The position numbers and the translations under genes were made by a program. Source: Frigoriglobus tundricola (GTDB lineage Bacteria; Planctomycetota; Planctomycetia; Gemmatales; Gemmataceae). From it: a DNA stretch of 64,000 bases. The notes beneath the pieces are model-generated. The model saw only the letters and a program-made list of their open reading frames with translations, did not search any database and was not told the origin of the DNA. The stretch is taken from positions 6,820,001 through 6,884,000 of the forward strand of contig NZ_CP053452.2 in assembly GCF_013128195.2 (NCBI RefSeq), in the 5' to 3' direction. Below are positions 51,240-58,881 of the stretch, one piece after another (positions within the stretch are counted from its first letter, which is position 1; each line of letters starts with the position of its first letter).

Positions 51240-52623
51240 GATCACGTTGGCTGAATTCGGCTGCCACCAAGGCAGAGGGTTTCCTGGTGTCACACGTTGA
51301 GCGGGCGGCCGGTGTACGTCCACTTGTAGGGCTTGGCTCGCGTCCGGTTGTGGTACGCGATGTACGCCAGGATCTTCTCCCGCAGGTCCGCCACCGATCG
51401 GAAGTTCCCACGGCGCACCACACGCCTCGCCAACACGCTGAACCAGATCTCCACTTGGTTCAGCCACGACGTGTGCTTGGGCACATACACGAACCGCACC
51501 CGATGACGGGGGTCCGTCAGGAACGCCTTCCGCGTCGCGACCGACTTCAGCACCCCGCTCTTCCCCTTCTGGCCCAGCGACTCGGCCGCCACCCCGCACA
51601 GCGACGCCACCCACAGCACCAACGTCGCCGAGGTGTGCGTCGTCAGGTTGTCCGCCACGAAGATCCAACCCGCCTGCGGGTCCGTCGCCACCGTTCGCTC
51701 AATGTGGGTGGCGAAGTCCTTCTCGCCCCGCGTCGCCTGAACCGTCGGGGCGATCACCTGACCCGTTGCGACCTCGAAGTTCCCGATCAAGCACTGCGTC
51801 CCATGCCGCTTGTACTCGAACTCAACTTTCTCGACCTGACCCGGCCGCATCGGCTTGGTCGGGGCGATCCGCTCCTTCGCCTGGACCCCCGTCATCTCGT
51901 CCACGCACACCGTGTGAACCCCGCTCTTCAACCCCGTTGGAGCAGCTTGGTAGCAGTCGCACACGTCCCGGACTTGTTGGGCGAATGCCTCGGGATCCTT
52001 GGGGTTCGCGTTCAGCCAATACCGACTCCGATGGGGCTGGAGTTCGGCACTTTTAAAAGGCGTCCGACGTGGCGGACGGAGATCGAGGGGACGATCCGGC
52101 GTGCCACCACTTCCTCGGCCAACGCGGTCGGGGTCCAGTGCGTCACGGGTCGGCCCGAATCCTCCGGCGGCTCACAGGCGACGGCGATGATCCGGGCGAT
52201 CTGGTCGGGAGCAAAAGTCCCCGGACAACCGGACCTGGGGTTATCACTCAGGACATCTTCGATTGCCCTCTCCAGGGTCGAGAGACCTTCGAGGCACTCG
52301 ATGCGAACCAGGGTGTCGAAGGCGGCCGCCCAACGTCGTCGCCAAATCCCGACGGCGTGCCGCTCGCACCCGAGGTGGTTGGCGATCGGTCCGTTCTGCA
52401 GGCGGTCGAAGGCGAGCAAGATGATCTCGGCTCGCTGGGCCAACCCCCGCGGGCAGGAGCGAGACCGAACCCACCGTTGGAGGATCTCTTGCTGCCGCTC
52501 GGTGATGACCACCTTGGCTGCCTTCCCTGGCATGACCGGCTCCGCTCGGGTGTCAATCTGGGATACCCCGCGAGGGTGACGAAATTCCCGTCGTGATGGA
52601 AGGCCAATTCAGCCAGCGTGATC
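51240..52623. mobile_element. IS630-type insertion sequence
   Basis: 1,384 bp flanked by TA dinucleotides (51238-51239 and 52624-52625), the usual IS630 target. Ends gatcacgttggctgaatt and aattcagccagcgtgatc are near-perfect inverted repeats (one mismatch in 18). It carries two overlapping transposase frames on the minus strand. Confidence 0.88.
51290..52533 (-). CDS. IS630 transposase made by -1 frameshifting
   Basis: The first frame (52533 down to its stop at 52012) encodes the DNA-binding half: [31 protein letters not shown], ending shortly after [11 protein letters not shown]. The second frame (open to 51290) encodes the catalytic half: [20 protein letters not shown] (first Asp), [20 protein letters not shown] (second Asp) and [17 protein letters not shown] (Glu). 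A slippery heptamer T-TTA-AAA lies at 52051-52057; slipping back one base there gives [20 protein letters not shown], the expected IS630 linker, with no gap. Product about 414 residues. Confidence 0.87.
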
Positions 52624-54979: not shown

Positions 54980-56200
54980 CTAGAGCTCGATCGAGGGCAA
55001 AAAGAGCCGCCGGTACTCCAGTTGCGCGAACCGATCGGTCATCCCGGCGAGGTAGTCGCCGACCACGCGCTCGAGACAGTCGAGCCGGGTCCGCGCCGCC
55101 GTGACCCACCCCGGGGGCGGCGGGCCGACCACCGCCTCGGAGCCCGTCCAGCGCCGAAGGTGCTTCTCCGGCAGCAGTTCCGGCGACCGAACGTACTCCG
55201 CAAACAGCGCCTGCAGGATGCGGTTGCCGTTGGCCGTCATCCGCAGCACCCGGTGGTGCTTGTACACGCGGTCGCGGAGGAACCGTTCCAGCCCGCTCTT
55301 GAGCCGGCGCAGTTCCGGCGTGAACCCGACGAGCGGGCCGGCGGCGGCGCGAACGTCGTCAATGGATCGGACGCCGGCCGCCCCGATCCGGTTCCCGGTC
55401 TCCTCGAGGAGATCGGCCACCTGCCAGGCGAGGAGCTCGCGGACCACCGCGACCCGCAGCGGGCCGTCGGAGAGCCCCGGCGTGTGGGCGTGGACGCGGT
55501 CCGTGGCCCGCGCCCAGAACTCGACCCGGCCCAGTTCCGGCAGCGTGATGAGGCCCAGGCCGAGGGCGTCGTCGGTGTCGTGTGTGTCGTAGGCGATGGA
55601 ATCGACCACGTCCGCGATCTGGGCCTCGAGCAGCGGCGCCCCGGCGGTCCGGAACTCGGCGCACTCGGGGGCGTCGCCCCGCCCGCTGTGCTGCACGAAG
55701 GCCTCGCGCACCTCGAACGACAGGTTCAACCCGGGGAACTGCGGGTAGCGCTCCTCCAGTTCATCTACGCGGCGGAGACCAAAAAGGTTGTGATCGAATC
55801 CGCCGAACGGTTTCAGACACTCGTCCAGGGCGCGCTCGCCGGCGTGGCCGAACGGCGGGTGGCCGATGTCGTGGGCGAGCGCGATCGCCTCCGCGAGGTC
55901 CTCGTTGAGCCGCAGCCGCCGGGCGACGGTGCGGGCGAGCTGGGTCATCTCGAGGGTGTGGGTGAGCCGGGTGCGGTGGTGGTCGTTGATGCCGGCCACG
56001 AGGACCTGGGTCTTGCCGGTCATGCGGCGGAACGCGGTGCAGTGGACGATCCGCTCGCGGTCGCGCTGGTAGAGCGAGCGGAACGGGTGGCCGGGCTCGG
56101 GGTGGCGCCGCCCGCGGCTGGCCCGGGACGGCATCGCGTAGGGCGCGAGCCACCCGTCCTCGAAGTCGAGCCAGTCGGCGGTGGTGATGGGAGCGGACAT
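54980..56200 (-). CDS. dgt: Deoxyguanosinetriphosphate triphosphohydrolase-like protein
   Basis: 406 residues from ATG 56200. HD-domain motif HTLEMTQLARTVARRLRLNE then AIALAHDIGHPPFGHAGERA with the HD pair; also IVHCTAFRRMTGKTQVLV, the nucleotide-binding opening, and ADVVDSIAYDTHDTDDAL. dGTPases cut dGTP to deoxyguanosine and triphosphate; many family members have other dNTP or unknown preferences. Length is typical of the bacterial type. No sign of breaks. Confidence 0.9.
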   Translation of the reverse strand: MSAPITTADWLDFEDGWLAPYAMPSRASRGRRHPEPGHPFRSLYQRDRERIVHCTAFRRMTGKTQVLVAGINDHHRTRLTHTLEMTQLARTVARRLRLNEDLAEAIALAHDIGHPPFGHAGERALDECLKPFGGFDHNLFGLRRVDELEERYPQFPGLNLSFEVREAFVQHSGRGDAPECAEFRTAGAPLLEAQIADVVDSIAYDTHDTDDALGLGLITLPELGRVEFWARATDRVHAHTPGLSDGPLRVAVVRELLAWQVADLLEETGNRIGAAGVRSIDDVRAAAGPLVGFTPELRRLKSGLERFLRDRVYKHHRVLRMTANGNRILQALFAEYVRSPELLPEKHLRRWTGSEAVVGPPPPGWVTAARTRLDCLERVVGDYLAGMTDRFAQLEYRRLFLPSIEL

Positions 56201-56357
56201 GGGGACGGCGGATCCTCGGGCCCGCAGCGGGGCAGCGGGCGTCATTGTACCAGCCGCCCCGAAGAATTCTGTTGACCTCCGACTGTGTCAAGATAATTAT
56301 GATCGTCAGCTCGACAATGGTAACGATGTGTGCGCCATTCTCTGGGGGGCCGCCGTT

Positions 56358-57779
56358 ATGGGACGCAGTCGCCCACTCAAAGGTCACCCGCTCGAGAACA
56401 GCCCCGAAAACGAACCGGTCGCCCCGTGGGGCGAGGAGATGTTCCCCGACGCCCCGTTCACCGGGTTCGCCGCGTCGGGGCTGTTCGTCCCGCGGGACGG
56501 GCACGAGGAGACGGACCTGACGTTCGCCCCGACCGCCGGCATCCGGCAGTCGGCGGTGACCGGAAAAAAGGTGTACGTGGCCAAGCCGAGCAAGGACGCC
56601 GACCAGACCCTCCAGCGGATCGGCCTGACGAGCACGCGGTTCCCCCACCGCCTGAGCGAGCTGAAGGCGAAACGGGCCGGACTGTTCACCCCGCTCGAGG
56701 CGCTCGGGATGAGCGCCGCGTTCTTCCACGACGAGAAGGAGCGCGACGACGCGCTGAGCGAGCTGAACGGCCAGTACGAGTTCGTCGCGGACTTCCCGCT
56801 CTCGCTGCCGTGCCGGGTGACGATGAGGGCGTCGCCGGCCAGCCGCCGGGCCGCCCAGACGGCCCGCGAGTGGCCCACGCAGAGCGGCGTGGCGGCCGCC
56901 CACGCGGCCGGGGTGCGGGGCAAGGACGTGCTGATCGCGGTCCTCGACACCGGGGCGGACGCCGACCACGCCGAGTTCGCCGGCCGGCGGATCACCTACC
57001 GGTACATCTCGTTCTTCCCGAACAACCCGAACTGGCCGCCGCGGGACGTGCGCGGGTTCGACACCAACGGGCACGGCACGCACGTGTCCGGCATCCTGGT
57101 GGGGCAGACGGTCGGGGTGGCCCCGGAGGCCGACCTGTACGTCGCGTCGGTCATTGAGAGCGAGACCATCCTGACCAGCGTCACGCGCGTGTTCGCCGGC
57201 CTGCAGTGGGTGCTCCGCCACTTCACCACCCCGAACAACGAGCGGAAGCCGGGGGTGCTCAACATGTCCCTCGGGTTCCCCCAGCAGGTCACGGGCGTGG
57301 ACGCGAACGAGCTCCAGGCGCGGTTCCGGACGATGCAGTTGTTCCTGACGACCCTCCGCCGCGCGAACGTGCTGCCGGTGGCGGCGATCGGTAACGCCGG
57401 GGCCGGGCAGTTCGGTTACCCGGGCGCGTTCAAGGAGGCGGTCGGGGTCGGCGCGGTGGACTTCAACGAACAGGTGCCGGGGTTCTCGGGCAGCGCTCCA
57501 GCGGGCAATACGACCCCGGCCAAGCCCGATCTCGCGGGGTACGGAGTGGGAGTCAACTCGGCGGTCGAGCGCGACTACGAGGGGCAATCGATTTACCAGC
57601 GGTTCAACGGTACGAGCATGGCCTCCCCGTACGTGGCCGGGATCGCCGCGCTGTACCGGTCCGAAGATCCCGCCTTGTCCGTCGACGAGGTTTATGCCAG
57701 ATTGGTAGCAACGGCCCGCCCCGTTGCGGGCCAAAAAGCCCGGACCGGGGCAGGGATCGCCACTTACGTCGCCCACTGA
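56358..57779 (+). CDS. S8-family (subtilisin-like) serine peptidase
   Basis: 473 residues from ATG 56358, with GGGGGG upstream. Catalytic triad D197 (IAVLDTGADADH), H239 (NGHGTHVSGILV), S420 (GTSMASPYVAGIAA); oxyanion Asn in AIGNAGAGQFGYPG. About 190 residues of N-terminal pro-region precede the domain. No signal peptide, so it is either cytoplasmic or secreted by a non-classical route. The next gene, 15 bases downstream, encodes a small protein with an I9-propeptide-like end, a probable partner. Confidence 0.9.
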   Translation: MGRSRPLKGHPLENSPENEPVAPWGEEMFPDAPFTGFAASGLFVPRDGHEETDLTFAPTAGIRQSAVTGKKVYVAKPSKDADQTLQRIGLTSTRFPHRLSELKAKRAGLFTPLEALGMSAAFFHDEKERDDALSELNGQYEFVADFPLSLPCRVTMRASPASRRAAQTAREWPTQSGVAAAHAAGVRGKDVLIAVLDTGADADHAEFAGRRITYRYISFFPNNPNWPPRDVRGFDTNGHGTHVSGILVGQTVGVAPEADLYVASVIESETILTSVTRVFAGLQWVLRHFTTPNNERKPGVLNMSLGFPQQVTGVDANELQARFRTMQLFLTTLRRANVLPVAAIGNAGAGQFGYPGAFKEAVGVGAVDFNEQVPGFSGSAPAGNTTPAKPDLAGYGVGVNSAVERDYEGQSIYQRFNGTSMASPYVAGIAALYRSEDPALSVDEVYARLVATARPVAGQKARTGAGIATYVAH

Positions 57780-57794
57780 GCCGGGGAGTCTCTG

Positions 57795-58163
57795 ATGGCA
57801 CCTCAGCACCCGTACCGCCCTTCATTGCCCGGACCATTGCCCGGATCCGCCCCGCCCGGAGTGCCCGGCGGGATGTACCAGTACGTTGTCAATTTGGTCC
57901 CGCCCGACCTGCCGGAACGCGCCACCGGTTCGCGAACTGGTGTGGTGGACGCGTACACCCGCGTCGCCACCGAGTTCATCGGCCGCGCCCGGCAAGCGCT
58001 CGCCGAACGCGGCCTCACCAACCAGGTGGACGGGTTCGGCGAGGCGTACGGGCTGCCCGTCGTTACCCTGACCGCCACCCCGTCGGCGGCGGCGGTGCTC
58101 GAGACGCTCCCGGGGGTCGAGGCCGTCTATCGCGACGACAACCGGTTGGGCCTCACGACCTGA
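57795..58163 (+). CDS. Small protein with I9/propeptide-like C-terminus, downstream of the protease
   Basis: 122 residues. Pro-rich start (PSLPGPLPGSAPPGVPGG), then YQYVVNLVPPDLPERATGSR, a helix (VATEFIGRARQALAERGLTN) and TLTATPSAAAVLETLPGVEA then VYRDDNRL. Helix plus a final PGVxxVxxD strand is how I9 inhibitors and subtilase propeptides look. Encoded 15 bases after the S8 peptidase, so probably an in-trans inhibitor or chaperone for it. This is inferred from pattern and position. Its 3' end overlaps the HIT gene tail by 11 bases. Confidence 0.6.
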   Translation: MAPQHPYRPSLPGPLPGSAPPGVPGGMYQYVVNLVPPDLPERATGSRTGVVDAYTRVATEFIGRARQALAERGLTNQVDGFGEAYGLPVVTLTATPSAAAVLETLPGVEAVYRDDNRLGLTT

Positions 58164-58650
58164 GCTCCTCCACCAGCAGGTCGTACAGCGCCTCCAGCGA
58201 CTGCGACAGCACCCGCATGTCGCTGACGGCGGTCATGAAGTTACTGTCGCCCACCCACCGCGGGACGATGTGCCAGTGCAGGTGCCCCGGCACCCCCGCG
58301 CCGGCGGCCCGGCCCAGGTTCAGCCCGACGTTGAACCCGTCGGGCTTCATCCGCCGCTCCAGCGCGCCGATCATTTTCCCCAGGGTGAGCTGGATGTCCA
58401 CCAGCTCGTCCGGGGTGAGCTCGTCGAACCGCGCCTTGTGCGCCCTGGGCGTCACGAGCAGGTGGCCGTTGTTGTACGGGAACAGGTTCAGGATCACGAC
58501 CGACAACTCGGTGCGGTGAACCACCAGGTTCGCCCGGTCCTCGGTCCCGGCGACGCCGCGGCAGATGAAGCAGTCGTCGCCGGTGGCGGCCGGTTTGTCC
58601 TTCGGTGCGGTGATGTACGCCAGCCGCCACGGTGCCCACAAACGATCCAC
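58153..58650 (-). CDS. HIT-family nucleotide hydrolase/transferase
   Basis: 165 residues from GTG 58650 (GGAGGGG upstream; longer in-frame starts are less likely). Motif HLHWHIVPRW is the HIT triad (HxHxHxx), with FICRGVAGTEDRANLVVHRT and ELSVVILNLFPYNNGHLLVT before it. The DRLWAPWRLAYI opening and two N-terminal Cys (CFIC) resemble the AP4A phosphorylase / FHIT-like branch. It acts on dinucleoside polyphosphates or nucleoside phosphoramidates; exact substrate unknown. Confidence 0.87.
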   Translation of the reverse strand: MDRLWAPWRLAYITAPKDKPAATGDDCFICRGVAGTEDRANLVVHRTELSVVILNLFPYNNGHLLVTPRAHKARFDELTPDELVDIQLTLGKMIGALERRMKPDGFNVGLNLGRAAGAGVPGHLHWHIVPRWVGDSNFMTAVSDMRVLSQSLEALYDLLVEELRS

Positions 58651-58881
58651 GGCGCCCCTCCGGGTGAAAAGCACGGTCCGGGGCCGGAACTTCGAGCCCC
58701 GGTCCCCCGATCCGTTCTCGCCGGGCGAGAACGACGGGCGCCCCTGTCCGATCACCGGCAGGGGCATAACCTGAAGGTGATTCTAGCGGGAACGGGGCCG
58801 GGTGCGTTCCTTGACTGTCGGGGCCGGCGGTCCTAACATGACCGTCTTAACTTGGACTCCGACACGATTGAGGGATCCGTC

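What the first reader, a model, noticed from the sequence alone, without database searches (positions are those of the whole stretch)
56358..58163. Subtilisin-type protease with a separate small propeptide-like partner encoded 15 bases downstream
The protease lacks a signal peptide and is followed by a 122-residue protein that ends like an I9 inhibitor (LPGVEAVYRDD). Subtilases often need a propeptide to fold; here such a part is a separate gene encoded after the enzyme. This could be an inhibitor-protease pair that restrains a cytoplasmic or exported enzyme.
Basis: inference. Interest (0 to 1): 0.55.

Follow-up and report, generated by a model that had tools for sequence, protein, structure and literature searches.

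The report
Protease paired with separate propeptide-like inhibitor
A bacterium carries a protein-cutting enzyme with no export signal and, directly behind it, a small gene whose product is predicted to fold like the self-inhibiting piece such enzymes normally carry, so the pair probably works as an enzyme and its own brake, much like a known pair in Myxococcus.

Summary
A 473-aa subtilase with a complete triad and no signal-like N-terminus (56358-57779) is followed 15 bases later, in the same frame, by a 122-aa protein (57795-58163). AlphaFold2 gives the small protein the strand/helix order of subtilase propeptides, with and without homologue rows; its best solved matches include propeptides, mixed with unrelated proteins of similar fold. 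No sequence profile tried recognises it.

Two overlapping same-phylum searches (392 and 397 genomes) gave seven other close no-signal subtilases; all seven have a small gene nearby, including the three chosen on the protease alone. Two plasmid-borne alphaproteobacterial homologues have one too. A profile of such partners also hits propeptides of secreted subtilases, so partners as a class look like stand-alone propeptide relatives. In nine testable same-genus genomes the flanking genes adjoin without the pair: it probably arrived as one module.

Best reading: a propeptide-like inhibitor and/or folding helper, working like Myxococcus PopC-PopD and Aeromonas ASP-ORF2. Inhibition, binding and docking are untested. 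I did not obtain PopC or PopD sequences, so membership is open. New member of a known kind; moderate interest, higher for the unnamed partner family.

The parts
56272..56300 (+). sigma-70-like promoter site (TTGACC-17-AATTAT) upstream of the pair
   Evidence: consensus scan: 2 sites (one per strand) in 56200-58250, 0.2 expected in shuffles; a pattern match only
56358..57779 (+). subtilase (S8), 473 aa, 50.6 kDa, no signal-like N-terminus
   Evidence: Pfam PF00082 E 2.5e-41; size; hydrophobicity
56358..56828 (+). N-terminal 157 residues of the protease; possibly its own pro-domain, undecided
   Evidence: aligned by MAFFT with the N-terminal regions of relatives, but an independent profile of eight relatives aligns only residues 162-468
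56919..57755 (+). catalytic domain, Asp197/His239/Ser420, Asn346
   Evidence: Pfam range; motifs; invariant columns of five proteases; subtilisin fold, Foldseek E 4.7e-17
57783..57788 (+). GGGGAG ribosome-binding-like site, 6 bases before the partner ATG
   Evidence: sequence
57795..58163 (+). small partner gene, 122 aa, 12.8 kDa
   Evidence: ORF; size; codon-position G+C
57795..57872 (+). Pro/Gly-rich leader, residues 1-26
   Evidence: sequence; low confidence in the model
57873..58160 (+). propeptide (I9)-like domain, residues 27-122, E-H-E-E-H-E, with C-terminal tail RDDNRLGLTT that could enter the active-site cleft
   Evidence: AlphaFold2 pLDDT 81.3, pTM 0.68; same order without homologue rows; fold matches. 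The last residues have pLDDT under 50 and their placement is inference
58153..58767 (-). HIT-domain protein, convergent flank (not part of the module)
   Evidence: Pfam HIT 2.6e-16
54980..56245 (-). HD-domain phosphohydrolase (dGTPase-like), divergent flank (not part of the module)
   Evidence: Pfam HD and HD_assoc; 'dGTPase-like' is my label

Best explanation
The two genes form a protease-plus-brake module. The small protein is a stand-alone relative of the N-terminal propeptide of subtilases (I9-like fold). It is made together with the enzyme, binds the catalytic domain with its beta-sheet and C-terminal tail, and keeps the enzyme inactive (and probably helps it fold) until the small protein is degraded or the enzyme leaves its compartment. 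Shown here: gene order, active-site motifs, no signal-like N-terminus, the predicted fold, conserved pairing in relatives, and flanks that adjoin without the pair in genus relatives. Inferred: binding, inhibition, chaperoning, and release by degradation, by analogy with PopC-PopD and ASP-ORF2.
For: Fold: AlphaFold2 on residues 27-122 with 11 remote partner rows gives E-H-E-E-H-E, pLDDT 81.3, pTM 0.68. A second run, in which no other row covers the partner, gives the same six elements at nearly the same residues (block means 50-84 in the domain), so the first result was not just imposed by the homologue rows. Foldseek: an Aspergillus alkaline protease propeptide is first (E 5.4e-3, tied with acetohydroxyacid synthase chains); subtilisin BPN', PCSK9 and Tk-subtilisin propeptides are within the first 36. 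The second aligner puts the PCSK9 pro-domain first (Z 9.8, tied with C. elegans BMY-1); the I9 inhibitor POIA1 scores Z 7.2. Pairing: all seven other proteases with profile matches below 1e-140 have a small gene nearby: L005, L007, L010, L004, L051, L053, L052 (partner found blind, 1.9e-18). L051-L053 were chosen on the protease alone. Azospirillum lipoferum (100 bases downstream) and Rhizobium sp. TH2 (27 bases) have one too. Class identity: a profile of ten stand-alone partners was searched against 1929 ORFs; after the partners, the next 15 ORFs (E 2.5e-6 to 0.12, some of them tandem or duplicate copies) are subtilases, each matched before the catalytic His. Four partners carry IRPV near the C-terminus, where the proteases' own N-terminal regions end in ...SLIRP (hhalign E 6e-4 for one comparison, probability 28%). 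Module: HIT and HD genes adjoin without the pair in the 9 of 17 same-genus loci where this could be seen. Analogues: PopD complexes with PopC and inhibits its secretion (PMC6434023, passages); ORF2, encoded just downstream, inhibits and matures ASP (PMC5638518, passages).
Against: The window partner has no detectable sequence similarity to the other partners compared or to Pfam I9, and lacks their IRPV motif. Ferredoxin-like folds are common: ACT, MORF and Mesd-type proteins score in the same range, and no Foldseek match reaches 1e-3. No coordinates were available, so docking was not examined; the tail is low confidence. In two relatives (L010, L057) the partner is convergent, and in L052 it lies 326 bases away. 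26 of 35 no-signal subtilase loci had no profile-recognised partner, among them the window and L004. Four other plasmid subtilases inspected list no recognisable partner.
Confidence: 0.7

Rival explanations
1. The partner is mainly a folding chaperone: the protease lacks a working propeptide of its own and the small protein supplies it in trans, with inhibition only transient (ASP-ORF2 model).
For: The protease's N-terminal 157 residues were not recognised by the profile of its relatives; [quoted passage not shown] 'propeptide-deficient' is from a reference title seen there).
Against: The nearest homologues keep a conserved pro-domain-like N-terminal region and still have the partner, so a second role such as inhibition is likely there.
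Confidence: 0.35
2. Effector and immunity protein: the protease is delivered to or damages other cells and the partner protects the producer.
For: In Rhizobium sp. TH2 the same protease domain is the C-terminus of a 1651-aa protein with GDSL-lipase, amidase and murein endopeptidase domains on a plasmid typed as mobilizable, with the partner gene 27 bases after it. The window pair is absent between its flanking genes in 9 testable genus relatives.
Against: No delivery domain found in the window protease (Pfam sees only S8); PADLOC gives a generic subtilase match to the catalytic domain (2e-23) and a weak IetS match (4.4e-6).
Confidence: 0.15
3. The small protein has an unrelated function (another ferredoxin-like domain) and adjacency in this genome is accidental.
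For: No sequence similarity to other partners; ferredoxin-like folds are shared by unrelated proteins.
Against: A small gene near all seven closest proteases, and both genes present together where genus relatives have neither.
Confidence: 0.12

Closest known systems
PopC-PopD of Myxococcus xanthus (popCD operon; popD is MXAN_0207)
   Same: Subtilisin-like protease without signal peptide, N-terminal part plus C-terminal subtilisin domain, 50.8 kDa against 50.6 kDa here (PMC6434023, passages); inhibitor gene in the same operon (PMC4320627, passages). Start-to-start distance worked out from offsets in PMC4320627 is 1437 bases, the same as here, probably by chance.
   Different: PopC and PopD were not compared in sequence or fold. 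PopC is found in the periplasm and secreted whole; nothing is known of where the window enzyme goes.
ASP-ORF2 of Aeromonas sobria
   Same: Subtilase with a separate partner encoded just downstream that inhibits it, its C-terminal end lying at the catalytic site (PMC5638518, passages).
   Different: ASP is an extracellular protease; ORF2 sequence and fold were not compared.
Stand-alone I9 inhibitors: POIA1, yeast peptidase B inhibitor, Arabidopsis subtilisin propeptide-like inhibitor 1, Toxoplasma MIC5, Plasmodium SUB1-ProM
   Same: Small proteins with the propeptide fold that act on subtilases in trans (PMC6993865, abstract and passages); POIA1 matches the model at Z 7.2; SUB1-ProM also lies beside subtilase genes.
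   Different: Eukaryotic; no sequence match found; inhibition shown for them, not here.
PCSK9 pro-domain
   Same: Joint best fold match, Z 9.8; a propeptide that stays bound to its enzyme (recalled).
   Different: Cut from the same chain, not a separate gene (recalled).

Membership tests
Peptidase family S8 (subtilases) | S8 catalytic domain over the Pfam cut-off | tested here: met
   142.4 bits against cut-off 21.8
Peptidase family S8 (subtilases) | Asp/His/Ser triad motifs | tested here: met
   DTG 197, HGTH 239, GTSM 418-421
Peptidase inhibitor family I9 | sequence match to PF05922 | tested here: not met
   no hit for the partner at E up to 10; none at 0.001 in the genome. The Azospirillum partner has a sub-threshold match, 13.3 bits against 21.2
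[quoted passage not shown]
   by prediction only; unrelated ferredoxin-like proteins score in the same range
Peptidase inhibitor family I9 | inhibits a subtilase | not testable with these tools
   needs purified proteins
PopC-PopD type pair | no-signal subtilase of about 50 kDa with N-terminal extension and small downstream partner | tested here: met
   against PMC6434023 and PMC4320627
PopC-PopD type pair | sequence relationship to PopC and PopD | not tested
PopC-PopD type pair | partner binds protease and holds back its secretion; regulated degradation of partner | not testable with these tools
   needs experiment
ASP-ORF2 type pair | protease lacks its own propeptide | tested here: inconclusive
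   N-terminal 157 residues not recognised by the relatives' profile, loosely aligned with their N-terminal regions

The most novel reading that the evidence does not exclude
PopC-PopD is one instance of a widespread, mobile, mostly unnamed class: subtilases without signal peptides, each held by a stand-alone copy of a subtilase propeptide whose tail imitates the end of the enzyme's own propeptide (in several relatives ...LIRPV). The partners arose by duplication of the pro-domain, diverge faster than the enzymes, and serve as brake, chaperone or immunity protein depending on context.
Probability: 0.4. Interest if true: 0.65.

Novelty: new member of a known kind. Interest (0 to 1): 0.42.

Why it matters
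Cells that make a subtilase without exporting it at once must keep it shut. A separate propeptide-like brake has been studied in few bacteria (PopC-PopD, ASP-ORF2). Finding such pairs in genomes of this window's phylum and on alphaproteobacterial plasmids, with partners that no Pfam or NCBIfam model tried here names, suggests a broader way of controlling proteases. It makes a clear test possible: does the partner's tail, which in several relatives resembles the end of the enzyme's own propeptide, sit in the active site?

Tried and rejected
Searches that found nothing: partner in 58 relatives (only own genome of 59 matched), in plasmids, in genome contigs (49 pattern matches, none confirmed) and in viral contigs (10, none); protease in genome contigs (14 pattern matches, none confirmed); L010's partner in plasmids (although the Azospirillum partner is there, so this mode misses such distant relatives); no PDB sequence match for the partner. 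PHROG 20760 hit the partner at E 0.026, not followed. PADLOC 'subtilase' (2e-23) was not taken as evidence for defence. The PDB profile search with the 12-row alignment lists Tk-subtilisin propeptide from E 0.13, but the best row is the unrelated bicaudal D homolog at 0.056, so I do not use it; the 8-row profile without the window found no propeptide. hhalign of the window partner against the partner profile: E 0.15, probability 0.4%. RNA folding at the gene junction: weaker than shuffles. Docking was attempted by folding the read-through of both genes, but no coordinates are returned, so nothing is claimed. The S8 protease of a same-genus genome (L003) was dropped: hydrophobic N-terminus and no partner seen. 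Of six plasmid subtilases inspected, four (Natronorubrum, Deinococcus, two Streptomyces) list no recognisable partner; one has a 69-aa convergent hypothetical gene that I did not examine, and that gene table is incomplete. Literature: the listings showed no paper on such pairs in planctomycetes; this covers only the held open-access library. PMC9549277 and PMC7159879 were seen as passages and not used.

Full report
What is there. The window holds an intact subtilase gene (56358-57779, 473 aa) and, 15 bases on and in the same frame, a 122-aa gene (57795-58163). The protease has the S8 domain at E 2.5e-41, the triad motifs and no strongly hydrophobic N-terminus. Both genes show the strong third-position G+C of their neighbours, the partner somewhat less (0.84 against 0.92-0.94), and the second has a ribosome-binding-like site. 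A sigma-70-like site lies upstream and no terminator-like site was found.

The small protein's fold. Sequence searches are silent: Pfam, NCBIfam and PDB, and no I9 match at E 0.001 in the whole genome. AlphaFold2 on residues 27-122 with 11 remote partner rows gave pLDDT 81.3, pTM 0.68 and the order E-H-E-E-H-E. Because rows can impose a fold, the second job is the useful control: the catalytic domain plus partner as one read-through chain, with homologue rows covering the catalytic domain only. The partner came out with the same six elements at nearly the same residues, at lower confidence (block means 50-84 in the domain, 25 at the tail; whole model 70.6). Foldseek against the PDB has no match under 1e-3. 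First, at 5.4e-3, are the propeptide of Aspergillus alkaline protease and, tied, two chains of yeast acetohydroxyacid synthase; subtilisin BPN', PCSK9 and Tk-subtilisin propeptides follow among ACT, MORF and other ferredoxin-like proteins. The second aligner ranks the PCSK9 pro-domain first (Z 9.8, 78 residues, 3.0 A), tied with the C. elegans BMY-1 domain, and gives POIA1 Z 7.2; its notes say that Z under 8 may mean only a common arrangement. So the fold is propeptide-like, but the fold alone does not prove the function.

Relatives of the protease. With the single sequence at E 1e-20, six other genomes of 392 in the phylum draw match, at 34-41% identity and mostly in the catalytic domain. A profile of five proteases (A1: window, L004, L005, L007, L010) gives a clear break in two draws that overlap, 392 phylum and 397 class genomes, with at most four candidates scored per genome: eight proteins below 1e-140 (those five plus L051, L052, L053), then nothing better than 5.4e-74. 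All seven others have a small gene nearby. Gaps, counted as bases between the ORFs: L005 8, L007 17, L010 24 (convergent), L053 126, L052 326, L051 overlapping by a few bases, L004 58 with the start I chose. L051-L053 were picked on the protease alone, so three of three is the fair test. L004's partner, like the window's, is not recognised by the partner profile (E 0.2), so for these two the claim rests on position and size, and for the window also on fold. A second group, L054, L057 (convergent) and L058, has such partners too. L055's genome has a partner-like match roughly 1.5 kb downstream, and L056's has one far away.

Named examples. On a plasmid of Azospirillum lipoferum 4B, AZOLI_RS21525 is 50.8% identical to the L010 protease over 99% of its length and is followed by the hypothetical AZOLI_RS21520. 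Rhizobium sp. TH2 has the same order (55.3% over 77%). The two partners match each other at 1.6e-15 and the Azospirillum one matches L007's at 3.8e-7; these E-values are for a database of seven sequences. Four other plasmid subtilases looked at list no recognisable partner.

Are partners propeptide relatives? A profile built from ten partners was run on 1929 ORFs of all loci, most of which surround subtilases. After the partners, the next 15 ORFs (E 2.5e-6 to 0.12) are all subtilases, and each match lies before the catalytic His; the best of them (L012, L008, L009) are below 7e-6, and L009/L012 are tandem or overlapping copies. The close proteases share an N-terminal region ending in ...SLIRP, and four partners carry IRPV near the C-terminus. 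A profile-profile comparison of the two gives E 6e-4 for one comparison at only 28% probability: suggestive, not proof of duplication. The window partner lacks the motif. Pfam names none of the partners tried; the Azospirillum one has a sub-threshold I9 match in the expected part of the profile (E 0.14).

Census. Of 59 subtilase loci with a complete ORF (window included), 9 of 35 without a signal-like N-terminus have a profile-recognised partner, against 1 of 24 with one; that one is the pro-region of a second protease in tandem. Eight of the nine were used to build the profiles; only L052 was found blind. L070 and L039 have small downstream ORFs that look propeptide-like by eye but match no Pfam family.

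Origin. The HIT gene beside the pair is found in 17 of 18 same-genus relatives. In 9 of these 17 loci the HD-phosphohydrolase gene is within the fetched flank, next to HIT on the same strand, with no protease or partner match between; in the other 8 it was not within the stretch fetched. Of 95 family genomes searched with the protease at 1e-20, only the own genome and one other match, the other being a different, secreted subtilase; the partner matched only its own genome of 59. The simplest reading is that both genes came in together; loss in all the others is not excluded.

Mechanism and comparison. PopC is a 50.8-kDa subtilisin-like protease without signal peptide, found in the periplasm and secreted whole; PopD forms a complex with it and inhibits its secretion until PopD is degraded under starvation (PMC6434023, passages); popCD is an operon (PMC4320627, passages). 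So lack of a signal peptide does not by itself mean a cytoplasmic enzyme. ORF2 of Aeromonas, encoded just downstream of asp, is needed for maturation and inhibits the enzyme (IC50 84.3 nM) with its C-terminal end at the catalytic site (PMC5638518, passages). Stand-alone propeptide-like inhibitors are also known in eukaryotes (PMC6993865, abstract and passages). The window pair works most likely along these lines. What I could not do: compare with PopC and PopD sequences, look at docking, or measure anything.

Verdict. Real gene pair, plausible and probably correct interpretation, known kind of system, new place and an unnamed partner family. Interest 0.42.

Noticed in passing
L107:4704-9656 (Rhizobium sp. 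TH2 plasmid pTH2a, IHQ71_RS29330): A 1651-aa protein combines GDSL lipase, N-acetylmuramoyl-L-alanine amidase, murein endopeptidase M74 and a subtilase domain of this group, followed 27 bases on by a partner gene; it looks like a cell-wall-degrading effector with its immunity or inhibitor protein.
   Followed up: partly
L084:1483-1845 and L085:1501-1890: Partner-like small proteins (matching the partner profile A3 at 1e-8 and 1.6e-4) with no subtilase seen in the fetched flanks.
   Followed up: no
L010:2428-2811 and L057:949-1332: Partner gene convergent to the protease rather than behind it in an operon, so co-transcription is not required.
   Followed up: partly
window 52012-52533 (-): ORF with an HTH_32 domain (E 8.9e-10) about 4 kb from the inserted pair; it looks to me like a transposase fragment.
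   Followed up: no
L070:1030-1350 and L039:2449-2712: Small ORFs downstream of other no-signal subtilases that read like propeptide domains but match no Pfam family and not the window partner.
   Followed up: partly
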